Assembly (NCBI RefSeq): GCF_008362905.1
Contig: NZ_VFJB01000004.1
Coordinates: forward strand, 186,001 to 250,000
Length of the DNA: 64,000 nucleotides
Direction: 5' to 3'
Source: Deferribacter autotrophicus
Lineage (GTDB): Bacteria > Chrysiogenota > Deferribacteres > Deferribacterales > Deferribacteraceae
Shown here: one piece after another, positions 14,857 through 43,416 of the stretch
How the letters are laid out: each line of letters begins with the position of its first letter
Numbering within the stretch: the stretch's first letter is position 1
Translations under genes and position numbers: made by a program
The notes under the pieces: generated by a model
Seen by the model: the letters and a program-made list of their open reading frames with translations, nothing else
What the model was told of the DNA's origin: nothing
The model's database searches: none

Positions 14857-14973
14857 AGAAATAATTTTCTTTAGTTTCATAAATTAAGTATTATATTCTA
14901 ATGTTTTTCAATGATTTGGTTTTGAATTCCAATTATAGCATCAAGTGCTTTTAAATAAGTCATACAAATTTTT

Positions 14974-15555
14974 AATTAGTTGCCGCTAAAAAAGCGGCAA
15001 CTAATTTATAGTAAATGATTTATTTTAATTTTATCATAGAAATTCCCCCAGTTTTTTGGTAATTTATACAGGACATAAAGGGGGTAAACCCCCTTTAAAT
15101 CCCTCGAACTTAAAGGGGAATACCCCCTTTAGAACCCCCGTTAAGAGGATAATACTGTAAATAATTGTTATTAATAAATTAGTTTTCTTAAAAAGAAAAC
15201 CAATTTAGGGGATGAAAATTATATTATTACCTTAAGGATGTTGCACAATGCACAAATAAATATGCGGAAGATTAACTATATACTTAATATATTGATAATA
15301 AAGAGATTACTTCGCTGACGCTCCTCGCAATGACGATAATATTAACGTCATTGCGAGGAGCGTCAGCGACGAAGCAATCTCTTTGTTTTTCAATGTGTTA
15401 CAAAAATAAATGAACTCCTGTTGTGCAATATCCTTACCTTATTTCATGTTTTTCATATGTATTGCATTTTTTTAACTTTTTGCTAGAAAACTTATTTAAA
15501 AATTATAAGATATTATTGATACTTAGTTCTCACTTTTTCAGTGAGAACTAAGTAT
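14974..15555. repeat. Multi-hairpin intergenic repeat, copy A (interrupted by a MITE)
   Basis: Fills most of an 800-bp gene-free gap. Hairpin 1, AATTAGTTGCCGCT / AGCGGCAACTAATT, at 14974-15006. G-rich hairpin AAAGGGGG / CCCCCTTT at 15077-15096, and a similar one at about 15112-15130. Hairpin 3, AATTAGTTTTCTT / AAGAAAACC, from about 15176. Hairpin 4, ATACTTAGTTCTCACT / AGTGAGAACTAAGTAT, a 16-bp perfect stem, at 15519-15555. A 200-bp element sits at 15235-15434. The same order of hairpins with similar linkers recurs at 41401-41656. No ORF is credible here. Confidence 0.75.
15228..15441. mobile_element. 200-bp MITE-like element with 7-bp target duplication
   Basis: Terminal inverted repeats AGGATGTTGCACAA (15235-15248) and TTGTGCAATATCCT (15421-15434) differ at one position. 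TACCTTA flanks both sides (15228-15234, 15435-15441). The inside is a large palindrome (about 15299-15384) whose arms contain CATTGCGAGGAGCGTCAGCG and are much richer in G+C than the host. It encodes no protein, so it must be mobilised in trans if at all. The inserted copy splits the multi-hairpin repeat. Confidence 0.75.
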
Positions 15556-20118: not shown

Positions 20119-21132
20119 TCAACCATTTTCTGTAACCTCTGTTAAATTTTTTAAATATTCTGGATCATATGGCCTACCGTTTTTTAATACACCAAATATT
20201 TGCCTTATCAATTTATTCGCTACTGCTATTATCGCCAATTTCTTCGCTTTACCTGATGATAAAAGCCTTCTATACAAATTTGAACAAAATTTATTATACC
20301 GTATCGCTGACAATGAACATACAAACAATATCTTCCTTATATAAGCATTTCCTCTCCTTGATATATGTCCCCTTCCCCTTACAGATGTCCCAGATTCCCT
20401 AATAGAAGGACACAAACCTATATAACTAACAACCTCCTTCGCCCTCTTGAAATTACGAAAACACTCCAATTTGCCCAACACTATCGACGCTAACTTCATA
20501 CCTACTCCAGGAATACTCATAACTAACTCATATTCCTCTCTATAACGACTTTTCAACAAAACCTCTAGTTCCTGCTCCAATTTCTTAATCTTGCTCTTAT
20601 AGGCGGAAATTACATCTTTATAACACGATATAACCTCTTCTTGTTCATATGGCAATTGGCTAAATCCCTCTATCTGATTATTCAATCTATTTATCTGAGA
20701 TTGAAAATCCTCTATTGCTTTTAAACGACTATCTATCTCATAATATAATTCATCCTTAGGTTTAAATCTCCATTTATAACCATATTCCAGCCCATATTCC
20801 GCTATCAATTTGGAATCCGATTTGTCTGTCTTTGCCTTCCTTAAATTCATATCTGAATATTTCTTTATTGACATCGGATTAGCTACACTTACTTCGTAAC
20901 CTAACTCCCTACTCAAATGGGTGGCTAATTTTAAATGATATACTCCTGTACTTTCCATCATAAAAAGTACTTTCGACCAATCTACTCCTTTTACTTTCTT
21001 AAGAAAATCTTTAGTAAAAGATCTTACACTATTGCTCGTCTCGTAATACTTGTGCGTAGATCCATCATAAAAACTTATTGACAATGTCGACTTTGATACA
21101 TCAATACCTACCACATTTTCAAATCTTCTCAT
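20119..21132 (-). CDS. IS110-family transposase/recombinase
   Basis: 337 residues. N-terminal RuvC-like DEDD domain: VVGIDVSKSTLSISFYDG, MMESTGVYHLKLA, and LRKAKTDKSDSKLIAEY. A coiled-coil linker (about 130-200) is followed by the Transposase_20 domain with MSIPGVGMKLASIVLGKLE, and GLCPSIRESGTSVRGRGHISRRGN containing the catalytic-serine region. Intact, so possibly active. It shares only family-level similarity with the transposase at 41847; the two belong to different subgroups. Confidence 0.92.
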   Translation of the reverse strand: MRRFENVVGIDVSKSTLSISFYDGSTHKYYETSNSVRSFTKDFLKKVKGVDWSKVLFMMESTGVYHLKLATHLSRELGYEVSVANPMSIKKYSDMNLRKAKTDKSDSKLIAEYGLEYGYKWRFKPKDELYYEIDSRLKAIEDFQSQINRLNNQIEGFSQLPYEQEEVISCYKDVISAYKSKIKKLEQELEVLLKSRYREEYELVMSIPGVGMKLASIVLGKLECFRNFKRAKEVVSYIGLCPSIRESGTSVRGRGHISRRGNAYIRKILFVCSLSAIRYNKFCSNLYRRLLSSGKAKKLAIIAVANKLIRQIFGVLKNGRPYDPEYLKNLTEVTENG

Positions 21133-40907: not shown

Positions 40908-41402
40908 ATGAAAAGAATTATATTTTTAATACTTATTGTTTTTTTAACATTCTTTGGTTGTAATCAAAATAATAACCAAGCAACCTCAACCTCTCAAAAA
41001 ATCACTGAACTTAAAAATATAAATGTAGCAGAATTTAAAAAACTTAAAGAACAGTACAGCGATAAAGTAATCCTTGTAAATTTCTTTGCTTCCTGGTGTC
41101 CACCTTGTAGACAGGAAACCCCAGGGTTTATCAAAGTATATAACAAATTAAAGGATAGTGGATTTGTAATACTTGGTTTCTCCATTGATGATAACATTGC
41201 TGATGCAATTAAATTCGTTAATGAGATAGGTATTACCTATCCTGTTTTCCATGCTGACCGCTCACTTGAATCCTATTTTAATATCAATACCATTCCAACT
41301 AGCATCTTTTATATAAAAGGTGGAAAACTTTATAATCTTCATGTGGGCTACATTGATGATAAAACTCTCGAAAATTATGTAAAAGAATTACTATCCAAAT
41401 AA
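40908..41402 (+). CDS. TlpA/ResA-like thioredoxin lipoprotein
   Basis: 164 residues with a lipoprotein signal (lipobox ending FFGC, Cys about 19) and a thioredoxin fold with active site SWCPPCRQE, and the cis-Pro region IPTSIFYIKGG. Periplasmic thiol reductant, for example for cytochrome c maturation. GAGGAGG ahead of the ATG. Its stop abuts the first hairpin of a repeat. Confidence 0.88.
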   Translation: MKRIIFLILIVFLTFFGCNQNNNQATSTSQKITELKNINVAEFKKLKEQYSDKVILVNFFASWCPPCRQETPGFIKVYNKLKDSGFVILGFSIDDNIADAIKFVNEIGITYPVFHADRSLESYFNINTIPTSIFYIKGGKLYNLHVGYIDDKTLENYVKELLSK

Positions 41403-41656
41403 TTAGTTGCCACTGAAAAGTGGCAACTAATTAATAATAAATGATTTGTTTTAATTACCTCATAAAAATTCCTCCAATTTTTGAATACTTTTCAGGACTT
41501 AAAGGGGGTTAGCACCCCCTTTAGAACCCCCGAAAAATAAGATAAGATTGTTAATTATTTTTAGTAAATTAGTTTTCTAAAGGAAACTAGTTTAAATATT
41601 ATAAAATCATAAAAATCTTTATTTAATAATTAGTTCTCACTTTTTCAGTGAGAACT
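41401..41656. repeat. Multi-hairpin intergenic repeat, copy B (left of IS110)
   Basis: Same order as copy A: hairpin 1 AATTAGTTGCCACT / AGTGGCAACTAATT (41401-41432), G-rich hairpin AAAGGGGG / CCCCCTTT (41501-41522), hairpin 3 AAATTAGTTTTC / GAAACTAGTTT (41566-41593), hairpin 4 TTAGTTCTCACT / AGTGAGAACT (41630-41656), cut by the IS110 after CT. Linkers such as AAATGATTT and TCAGGAC-TAAAGGGG are shared with copy A. No gene. Confidence 0.75.
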
Positions 41657-41685
41657 CCTACGTTTTTTTGTTGTATAAGAAAATT

Positions 41686-41840
41686 ATATTATGTAATGAA
41701 TTAAGAATGGGACAGAGGACTACAGTGGGAATAAGCTTAAAAGCTTCATATTTAGTCTGTCCCCCGTCCCGAAAGTCCCTATTGGTTGATTTGGCTATCA
41801 AGCCACTGTCAAACGGGAGTTTGGATTCGGGACTAAAATA
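41686..41840 (+). ncRNA. Bridge RNA of the IS110 element
   Basis: Two closed loops in tandem. Target loop: stem GGGACAG (41709-41715) / CTGTCCC (41757-41763), left guide CAGTGGGAAT (41723-41732), right guide TTAG (41752-41755). Donor loop: stem GTCCCGAA (41766-41773) / TTCGGGAC (41826-41833), left guide TGGTTGATT (41783-41791), inner hairpin TGGCT/AGCCA, right guide GGGAG (41815-41819). All four guides pair with the observed target flanks or the element's own ends, allowing G-U pairs. Start of transcription is inferred from the junction promoter. Position upstream of the recombinase fits the IS110 group. Confidence 0.82.
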
Positions 41841-41846
41841 TTTTAA

Positions 41847-43046
41847 GTGAGGTTTGACATGAAAAATGACAAATTTGCTTTCTTTATAGGTGTTGATGTT
41901 TCCAAAGATAAGTTTAATTGCGCTATTATTAACAATAAGCTTGAACTTCTCAAAGAAGCTGAATTTCAAATGGACATTGATGGTTTTAACAGCTTCTATG
42001 ACTTGATTAAAAAGTATGACTCCTCTATCATTGCTCTTGAATCTACTGGCAGCTATCACATTAACCTCTTAGCATCCCTTGTATCCAAAAAGAAAGATGT
42101 CTGTCTTATTAATCCAGCTCTCATCAAAAAATTTGCCCAATCCGTTACTCTCAGAAAAACCAAAACCGATAAAATTGATGCTGTTATCATTGCTAAATTT
42201 ATAGCTAAGAATATTGAACATTTCAATTATTTTGCTCTTCCTGAGTCCAATGATATTATCGCACTTGCCAGGATGAGAGAACATATTACTCAGCAGATTG
42301 CAAGAGTTAAGACTCAGCTTAAACAGCATCTTACTGTAGTATTTCCTGAACTTGTGGCAAATGCCAATGTATTTACTCAATCCATTTTGCATATCCTTAA
42401 ACATATGCCTACAGCTGAAATCATCAGGAATGCTAATGAAGATGATATTCAAAAGATTCTTGATGAATTGAAGTTTGCACATAAGTCAAATATTACCCCT
42501 CAGAAGCTCATATCCCTTGCTAAATCCTCCATTGGTATTTCCTCTGATATCTGGGCTACTGTCATCAAAGAAGATGTTGAAATGCTCATATTTCTTAATA
42601 GCCGACTTGATAATATTACGAAGGAATTTATTGATAAAATAAAATCTTCCAAAAAAGATGATATGGAGATTATTACTTCTATCAAAGGAATTAATGATAT
42701 TACCGCTGCCCATTTTCTTGCAGAAATTAAAGATATAAACAGATTTGCCAACAAAGGTAAACTTGCTGCCTATGCCGGGATAGATCCTGCTATTAAACAA
42801 TCCGGAAGTATGTATAGTAACGGCAGAATAAGTAAAAAAGGATCCCGGTCCCTTAGGCGTATTCTTTATCTTATGGCAAGTGGTGTTATGAAGTTTAATG
42901 AGTATTTTAGAGCGTATTATTTGAAAAAGAAGGAGGAAGGTATGCCTCATAGAAAAGCTATGATTGCATTGTGTAACAAACTTGTGCGTGTACTTTATGC
43001 CATGCTTACAAAAAAAGAGGTTTTTCATATGCCTAAATTATCTTAA
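41847..43046 (+). CDS. IS110-family recombinase (bridge-RNA-guided)
   Basis: 399 residues; a GTG-initiated longer frame is not needed, as ATG at 41859 (MKNDKFAF) lies behind GAGG and may be the true start. RuvC-like DEDD domain: FIGVDVSKDKFNCAII, IIALESTGSYHINLL, LRKTKTDKIDAVIIAKFI. Coiled coil (about 120-260), then Transposase_20: TSIKGINDITAAHFLAEI and AAYAGIDPAIKQSGSMYSNG with the serine region, and RISKKGSRSLRRILYLMA. Intact. Cuts and joins DNA at the CT core under RNA guidance, by analogy with IS621. Confidence 0.93.
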   Translation: MRFDMKNDKFAFFIGVDVSKDKFNCAIINNKLELLKEAEFQMDIDGFNSFYDLIKKYDSSIIALESTGSYHINLLASLVSKKKDVCLINPALIKKFAQSVTLRKTKTDKIDAVIIAKFIAKNIEHFNYFALPESNDIIALARMREHITQQIARVKTQLKQHLTVVFPELVANANVFTQSILHILKHMPTAEIIRNANEDDIQKILDELKFAHKSNITPQKLISLAKSSIGISSDIWATVIKEDVEMLIFLNSRLDNITKEFIDKIKSSKKDDMEIITSIKGINDITAAHFLAEIKDINRFANKGKLAAYAGIDPAIKQSGSMYSNGRISKKGSRSLRRILYLMASGVMKFNEYFRAYYLKKKEEGMPHRKAMIALCNKLVRVLYAMLTKKEVFHMPKLS

Positions 43047-43071
43047 TAATTTTTAATATTTATAGTTGACT

Positions 43072-43416
43072 AATTAGTTACTGCTGAAAAAGTGTATTTT
43101 ATTGATAAATGGAAAATTATTCATTTGTGATATTTGCAAAGATGATACTTAAAGGGGGCAAGCCCCCTTTAGAACCCCCTATAAAGAAAATAAAATGGAT
43201 AAGAATTTATTTATTATTTTTTACATAAATTAGTTTTCTAACGAAAACTAATTTAGGGGGCAAGCCCCCTTTAGAACCCCCGAAAAGGTTTAGAGTTTAC
43301 AATAAATTATATCAAATAACAGATTTTAGTAATTGATGGATAACAATCAGTATAATAAGGAAAAACATATTAACTATTAATTAGTTGCCACTTGAAAAAG
43401 TGGCAACTAATTAACG
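43072..43416. repeat. Multi-hairpin intergenic repeat, copy C (right of IS110)
   Basis: Starts with a decayed TTAGTTACTGCTGAAAAAGTG hairpin. Then G-rich AAAGGGGGC / GCCCCCTTT (43151-43170), hairpin 3 AAATTAGTTTTC / GAAAACTAATTT (43227-43254), another G-rich hairpin (about 43255-43272), and a 17-bp perfect hairpin 1, TTAATTAGTTGCCACTT / AAGTGGCAACTAATTAA (43377-43414), 8 bp from the nikR stop. Before the IS110 arrived, B and C formed one repeat of about 600 bp bounded by hairpin 1 at both ends. Confidence 0.7.

What the first reader, a model, noticed from the sequence alone, without database searches (positions are those of the whole stretch)
14974..15555. Undescribed multi-hairpin repeat with compensatory stem changes
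Three gene-free regions share an ordered array of hairpins whose stems all begin TTAGTT and end AACTAA. Between copies the stems vary in a paired way: GCCGCT/AGCGGC, GCCACT/AGTGGC, CTCACT/AGTGAG, TTCTT/AAGAA. G-rich AAAGGGGG/CCCCCTTT hairpins lie between them. Covariation implies the folded form is selected. The palindromes are too many and too regular for terminators, and there is no ORF. It could be a structured RNA, a DNA-processing substrate or a non-autonomous mobile unit.
Basis: partly seen in the sequence, partly recalled or inferred. Interest (0 to 1): 0.7.

Follow-up and report, generated by a model that had tools for sequence, protein, structure and literature searches.

The report
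Hairpin-ended mobile DNA repeat (MITE)
The hairpin array is a small transposon without its own genes, with hairpin ends, scattered through the genome of a deep-sea vent bacterium, and an RNA-guided insertion sequence uses those hairpin ends as its landing sites.

Summary
The hairpins are real. They are the ends of a dispersed non-autonomous transposon (MITE), about 100-570 bp long, in Deferribacter autotrophicus SL50 (assembly N50 matches contig C1). Each end is a 23-bp hairpin next to a 6-7 bp target duplication of the form TAnn(n)TA. The single-arm terminal repeat, TAGTTnCnnCTGAAAAAGTG, also ends a Bacillota insertion sequence with a 460-aa ISNCY transposase. Seven further ISNCY elements were read: four share the CTGAAAAA repeat core, and four have a perfect 6-bp TAnnTA duplication. 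No ISNCY transposase was found in D. autotrophicus. Copies with the same layout occur in Omnitrophota genomes. The window's array at 14974-15555 is one MITE carrying two further insertions. The "CTCACT" and "TTCTT" stems are different hairpins, not compensated variants of one. Real covariation exists, but at the base of the stems, between the target duplication and the inner arm. It runs in both directions and comes with flipped loops, which fits template-switch repair of DNA palindromes rather than a selected RNA. An IS110 element sits in these hairpin ends at 8 of 9 copies; loops of its predicted bridge RNA match this target and its donor junction. A new variant of a known kind.

The parts
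14973..14978 (+). left target-site sequence TAATTA of MITE copy 1
   Evidence: duplication test
14979..15001 (+). left-end hairpin H1 of copy 1, GTTGCCGCT-AAAAA-AGCGGCAAC (carries the one true compensatory change in the core)
15069..15212 (+). repeat B inside copy 1: G-rich hairpins (15076-15131) and middle hairpin H2 (15175-15207); limits approximate. B also occurs without H1/H3 at L068 and L072
15235..15433 (+). repeat C inserted in copy 1: ends AGGATGTTGCACAA / TTGTGCAATATCC, 8-bp duplication TTACCTTA (15227-15234 and 15434-15441), contains the ATTGCGAGGAGCG palindrome
15526..15548 (+). right-end hairpin H3 of copy 1, GTTCTCACT-TTTTC-AGTGAGAAC
15549..15554 (+). right target-site sequence TAAGTA of copy 1; differs by one base from the left copy and matches the inner arm TACTTA (15520-15525)
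41400..41655 (+). MITE copy 2: H1 core 41406-41427, H2 41565-41594, H3 core 41633-41655
41657..43071 (+). IS110-family element inserted after GAGAACT of H3; transposase ORF 41847-43046 (+); CT at both junctions
41709..41833 (+). predicted bridge RNA of the IS110 element: target loop 41709-41763 (GTGGGAA), donor loop 41766-41833 (TGGTTGATT)
43072..43413 (-). MITE copy 3 (subfamily D), reverse orientation: single-arm terminal repeat 43077-43094, H1 core 43384-43407, duplications TAATTA

Best explanation
The array is a MITE: a short transposon without coding capacity whose two terminal inverted repeats have each become a hairpin. Shown: dispersed copies; paired ends; 6-7 bp TAnn(n)TA target duplications; the same terminal repeat on an element with an ISNCY transposase; an IS110 element inserted at one fixed position in these ends. 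Inferred: the MITE was moved in trans by an ISNCY (DDE-type) transposase that bound GTTnCnnCTGAAAAAGTG, cut next to it and joined it to a staggered TAnn(n)TA target; that transposase is now gone from, or too divergent to detect in, this genome. Inferred: the palindromic ends and their covariation at the stem base arise because DNA polymerase switches template within a palindrome, which makes the two arms alike and sometimes flips the loop. Inferred: the IS110 element inserts into these ends because its bridge-RNA target loop pairs with AGTGAGAACT/AGTGGCAACT.
For: Dispersed copies: 118 BLAST matches to the 261-bp query in one genome. The terminal repeat at up to one mismatch occurs 71 times in this genome and 0 times in the congener. 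Duplications: in 27 units, 11 match perfectly at 6 bp against 5.0 expected in permutations (p 0.00015 for the mean match) and 3 at 7 bp against 0.26; among the 18 units that are not TAATTA, 5 are perfect against 0.95 expected. Same terminal repeat on a coding element: L130 has TAGTTACTCCTGAAAAAGTG / TAGTTACTCCTGAAAAAGTA ends, TAGTTA on both sides, and a 460-aa protein hitting NF033593 (ISNCY) at 1.8e-143. Seven further ISNCY elements read: 4 of 7 share the CTGAAAAA repeat (L189, L205, L206, L207), and 4 of 7 have a perfect 6-bp TAnnTA duplication (L205, L206, L207, L210). Multi-hairpin MITEs with the same end type in Omnitrophota. Covariation confined to stem positions 1-7: H1 n=38 and H3 n=23, 0 of 20,000 permutations as high; none at positions 8-12. 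Count tool: 14 and 16 cells changed on both sides, 0 of 500 shuffles as high. Direction and flips: all four ends with inner arm TACTTA (L058, L061, L062, L070) have TAAGTA outside and TAATTA at the other end, while in L035, L056 and L060 the inner arm follows the flank; loops are inverted in L038, L074 and one H1 of L070, and probably L078. IS110: 8 of 9 copies in a MITE end, 6 in H3 and 2 in H1. Guides: target loop to H3 8 of 9 paired (0.75% of background 9-mers), donor loop to donor 9 of 9 (0.7%), each loop not matching the other's partner.
Against: No ISNCY transposase was found in D. autotrophicus or the congener above weak DDE-level similarity (best E 3.1e-4 and 8.2e-6), so the partner is inferred from other phyla. 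13 of 27 units lack a perfect 6- or 7-bp duplication. L208, L209 and L210 do not share the CTGAAAAAGT repeat, and L209 and L189 show no matching TAnnTA duplication. No empty site was demonstrated. In an unrestricted search of the whole IS110 left end the target guide is not significant (56.8% of background 9-mers do as well), and the loop limits were widened by two bases after a first attempt failed for the target. The predicted fold of the left end is only modestly stable (z -1.87), and its minimum-energy structure does not show the two loops as cleanly as the centroid.
Confidence: 0.86

Rival explanations
1. A structured RNA (riboregulator or ncRNA) whose folded form is under selection.
For: Stems are near-perfect and covary beyond shuffles and slid controls.
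Against: No Rfam match at gathering threshold. Covariation is limited to the 6-7 bp that are target duplication plus adjacent inner arm, apart from one core pair in one copy; 6 of 16 (H1) and 9 of 16 (H3) stem pairs never vary. One arm of the covarying outer pairs is flanking target DNA. Loops are inverted in several copies. Interiors differ and are often replaced by other repeats.
Confidence: 0.05
2. A REP/REPIN-like element moved by a Y1 (RAYT or IS200/IS605) transposase acting on single-stranded hairpins.
For: Short intergenic palindromes in inverted pairs, and targeting by IS110, are as described for REPs (PMC1525189 abstract; PMC11208160 passages).
Against: No PF01797 (Y1_Tnp) match in the genome, while the control genomes ring in 5 of 14. 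Target duplications are present, which IS200/IS605 chemistry does not make (recalled). The single-arm repeat is on a DDE-type ISNCY element.
Confidence: 0.04
3. The covariation is made at transposition itself: the inner arm pairs with the single-stranded target overhang and either selects the target or templates gap repair, so the hairpin is a working part of the mechanism. (A variant of the best explanation that differs only in the cause of the covariation.)
For: Excess pairing stops at about the length of the duplication (positions 1-7, none at 8-12).
Against: Both directions of change are seen, and L035 matches over 11 bp, beyond the duplication. Inverted loops are a reported mark of template switching (PMC8604942, start of abstract).
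Confidence: 0.15
4. Bidirectional transcription terminators or mRNA-stabilising hairpins kept by the host.
For: All 25 measured units are free of ORFs of 100 aa or more.
Against: Palindromes lack consistent U-tracts, come in ordered pairs with target duplications, and in L062 the unit sits inside what reads as a pre-existing terminator stem.
Confidence: 0.04

Closest known systems
MITEs derived from ISNCY-family (NF033593) insertion sequences
   Same: Non-coding, terminal inverted repeats of the autonomous element, TAnn(n)TA target duplications, dispersed intergenic copies.
   Different: Ends palindromised into hairpins; multi-hairpin interior; no autonomous partner found in the host genome. 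I found no published ISNCY MITE of this type in the searches listed.
REP / BIME / REPIN elements
   Same: Short intergenic palindromes, inverted pairing, used as IS110 targets.
   Different: No Y1/RAYT transposase in the genome, target duplications present, no GTAG foot (the foot is recalled).
IS621 (IS110 family) inserting into REP elements
   Same: One fixed site in a dispersed palindrome, CT core, bridge-RNA loops pairing with target and donor; in IS621 too the natural target differs from the loop's exact specificity at one base (PMC11208160 passages).
   Different: Target is a hairpin end of a MITE; the bridge RNA here is predicted, not tested.
IS4321/IS5075 (IS1111 group) inserting into Tn21-family terminal inverted repeats
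   Same: An IS110-family element that uses the ends of another transposon as target (title only, seen in the PMC11208160 reference list).
   Different: Different target repeat and element; the targeted transposon here is a MITE.

Membership tests
MITE | short, non-coding, with inverted-repeat ends | tested here: met
   25 units of 99-570 bp, no ORF of 100 aa or more overlapping by more than 30 bp; inverted ends
MITE | target-site duplication | tested here: met
   14 of 27 units perfect at 6 or 7 bp, above permutation; 13 of 27 imperfect
MITE | shares ends with an autonomous element | tested here: met
   L130 in a Bacillota MAG; not found in the same genome
ISNCY family | encodes an ISNCY transposase | tested here: not met
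   the window element encodes nothing; it is at most a derivative, not a member
ISNCY family | TAnnTA duplication next to a CTGAAAAAGT-type repeat | tested here: met
   MITEs and 4 of 8 ISNCY elements that have both (L130, L205, L206, L207)
REP/REPIN | RAYT (Y1) transposase in the genome | tested here: not met
   0 matches to PF01797
IS200/IS605 derivative | no target duplication, Y1 transposase | tested here: not met
   duplications present; no Y1
IS110 (element 41657-43071) | DEDD and Transposase_20 domains | tested here: met
   PF01548 7.3e-32, PF02371 1.9e-26; NF033542 7.4e-73
IS110 (element 41657-43071) | bridge RNA with loops pairing to target and donor | tested here: inconclusive
   loops match specifically when limits are set by the stems, not in the unrestricted search
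structured RNA family | match to a curated family or shown transcript | tested here: not met
   0 Rfam matches; transcription not testable here

The most novel reading that the evidence does not exclude
The palindromised end is a functional module rather than a scar. A single 23-bp hairpin, being two terminal repeats back to back, can itself move and be given a target duplication, and its inner arm pairs with or rewrites the incoming target duplication, so the element imposes its own stem on each new site. In Omnitrophota genome G060, 4 of 6 single hairpins (L175, L176, L178, L179) are flanked by direct 6-7 bp repeats with at most one mismatch, clearly better than the inverted match.
Probability: 0.13. 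Interest if true: 0.75.

Novelty: new variant of a known kind. Interest (0 to 1): 0.5.

Why it matters
It warns against reading covariation as proof of a selected RNA: here real, statistically strong covariation sits between a transposon's inner arm and genomic target DNA. It gives a natural record, in about 60 copies of one palindrome in one genome, of what looks like template-switch correction (arm matching plus loop inversion). It links an orphan MITE to a transposase family and adds a case where an RNA-guided IS110 element depends on the ends of another mobile element.

Tried and rejected
IS630 (DDE_3, PF13358) as partner, suggested by a first reading of a TA duplication: no match in the genome, and the duplication proved to be 6-7 bp. 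Y1/RAYT: no match. The terminal repeat in relatives: 45 genomes of the order, only scattered matches outside G000, at most three in a genome. The palindrome in genome contigs: 0 matches; single-arm repeat: 36 loci, most of which read like coding sequence and are taken as chance, the others giving L112, L120, L121, L122, L126, L130, L136 and L141. Viral contigs: 2 and 1 matches, none convincing; ISNCY transposase in viral contigs: none. 147 Omnitrophota genomes: only G060 with the hairpin and only G184 with a 32% ISNCY relative. Literature on ISNCY MITEs and IS110/MITE: nothing matching in the listings. No empty-site comparison was attempted, because the congener lacks the repeat and I had no other strain of the species.

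Full report
Source. The window is G000:C4:186001-250000. Contig C1 of G000 is 319,692 bp, exactly the N50 given for Deferribacter autotrophicus SL50T in PMC6896113 (passages read); the identification rests on that number and on the genome size. That paper lists IS110 but not ISNCY or IS200/IS605 for this species, and the words MITE, palindrom and hairpin do not occur in its main text.

Observation. The loose TTAGTT...AACTAA pattern occurs 78 times per strand genome-wide against 20 for a reversed control. BLAST with one unit gives 118 matches in this genome. The terminal repeat does not occur in the one congener: 0 matches at up to one mismatch.

Anatomy. Reading 54 stretches (layout) shows one design: left hairpin H1 (GTTGCCACT-GAAAA-AGTGGCAAC), a variable interior that may hold G-rich hairpins and a middle hairpin H2, and right hairpin H3 (GTTCTCACT-TTTTC-AGTGAGAAC). 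H1 and H3 are inverted relatives of each other, as terminal repeats should be. Subfamily D has an unfolded right end...CACTTTTTCAGCAGGAAC, which reveals the single-arm repeat GTTnCnnCTGAAAAAGTG. Complete units measure 99-570 bp over 25 measured, and none overlaps an ORF of 100 aa or more by more than 30 bp. The four D copies compared are 93-99% identical. By my reading by eye, 48 of the 54 stretches hold at least one such end.

Target duplication. Over 27 units the left and right flanks match at 6 bp in 4.74 positions on average against 4.34 in permutations (p 0.00015); 11 are perfect at 6 bp (5.0 expected) and 3 at 7 bp (0.26 expected). Examples are TAAATTA (L049), TAAAATA (L060), TATTTTA (L081) and TACATA (L086).

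The transposase family. A scan of genome contigs (84,980 species genomes) with the single-arm repeat gave 36 loci. Most read like coding sequence, but L130 (Bacillota MAG) has the repeat at both ends of a 1.6-kb element flanked by TAGTTA on both sides, with a 460-aa ISNCY transposase. A second, internally shortened copy lies in the same genome (L189). Plasmid ISNCY elements support the type: Thermobacillus TAGTTTCCCCTGAAAAAGTC with TACTTA duplication, Rhodococcus and Mycobacterium ACTTCGACCTGAAAAA with TAGCTA and TAGTTA, Marinobacter TAGCTA with a different repeat; Skermanella has a longer duplication and a different repeat, and Rhizobium none that I could read. In the host genome the best similarity to this transposase is E 3.1e-4 over a DDE segment, so the MITE looks orphaned.

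Elsewhere. Omnitrophota genomes hold the same kind of element: H1-type hairpin, a GGGGG/CCCCC hairpin, further hairpins, and an H3-type hairpin, one with the arm TTAGTTCTCACTGAAAAA identical to D. autotrophicus (L112/L183). It is sporadic: 1 of 147 Omnitrophota relatives of G060, counting G060 itself. In G060, 4 of 6 single hairpins are flanked by direct repeats with at most one mismatch, clearly better than the inverted match. I read these as two-end fusions, like solo LTRs, or as 23-bp mobile units; this is not settled.

The covariation. The nine core pairs hardly vary; the one true double change in the core is in the window copy (1 of 26 distinct H1 rows). The outer pairs do covary: 14 (H1) and 16 (H3) cells changed on both sides over the whole stem, no shuffle as high in 500. 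Permuting inner against outer arms among copies gives 0 of 20,000 as high for positions 1-7 in both classes and no excess at positions 8-12. The outer arm here is target DNA. Two directions are visible. The inner arm TACTTA is shared by L058, L061, L062 and L070, whose right flank is TAAGTA while the left flank stays TAATTA, so the flank was probably rewritten. In L035, L056 and L060 the inner arm departs from the family and follows the flank, in L035 over 11 bp. Loops are inverted relative to the element in L038, L074 and one H1 of L070, and probably L078. Arm homogenisation plus spacer inversion is what template switching between inverted repeats is reported to cause (PMC8604942 and PMC8794818, starts of abstracts seen in the search listing). 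I therefore assign the covariation to replication; this is inference.

The IS110 element. Its 399-aa transposase is present in 8 identical copies and one 94% copy. All 8 lie after GAGAACT of H3 (6) or GGCAACT of H1 (2), with GTTGACT|A at the other junction. The ninth, diverged copy lies after AGTGCAACT, a look-alike outside a MITE. The left end holds two stem-bounded loops. The target loop contains GTGGGAATA, pairing 8 of 9 with GTGAGAACT when G:T is allowed (0.75% of background 9-mers), and the donor loop contains TGGTTGATT, pairing 9 of 9 with TAGTTGACT (0.7%); neither matches the other's partner. With the narrower loop limits first tried, the target match was not significant, and over the whole left end it is not significant either. 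The right-hand guides UUAG and GGGAG pair with CTAA and CTCCT. The bridge-RNA pairing rules used are those in PMC11208160 (passages read).

Verdict. The thing is an ISNCY-type MITE with hairpin ends, used as a landing site by an IS110 element: a new variant of a known kind.

Noticed in passing
window 20119-21132 (-) and L193-L200: A second IS110 lineage (337-351 aa, 8 copies read) sits in another dispersed repeat, between GGGAAAACATTTTTC and CTCACAAAACGTCC, flanked in most copies by GGGGTGACTCCAG-type ends.
   Followed up: partly
L048, L201, L202: A third IS110 lineage (336 aa, 3 copies) sits in the ATTGCGAGGAGC palindrome, so three IS110 lineages in one genome each use a different dispersed repeat.
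   Followed up: partly
L050, L051, L053, L076: A 95-bp repeat with ACACGTGT ends is inserted at the same point of the H1 loop at four loci, with a TGA/TCA duplication; a similar end also lies outside a hairpin in L075.
   Followed up: partly
window 15235-15433; L060, L039, L056: Repeat C (ends GGATRTTGCACAA, 8-bp duplication TTACCTTA in the window copy) carries the ATTGCGAGGAGCG palindrome and inserts inside the MITEs.
   Followed up: no
L062 1990-2370: A MITE sits between GTAGCCCGG and CCGGGCTTTTTTTT, as if inserted in the loop of an existing terminator.
   Followed up: no
L067, L056, L070: Neighbouring MITEs share a single hairpin or carry an H1-type core at the right end, suggesting recombination between hairpins.
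   Followed up: no
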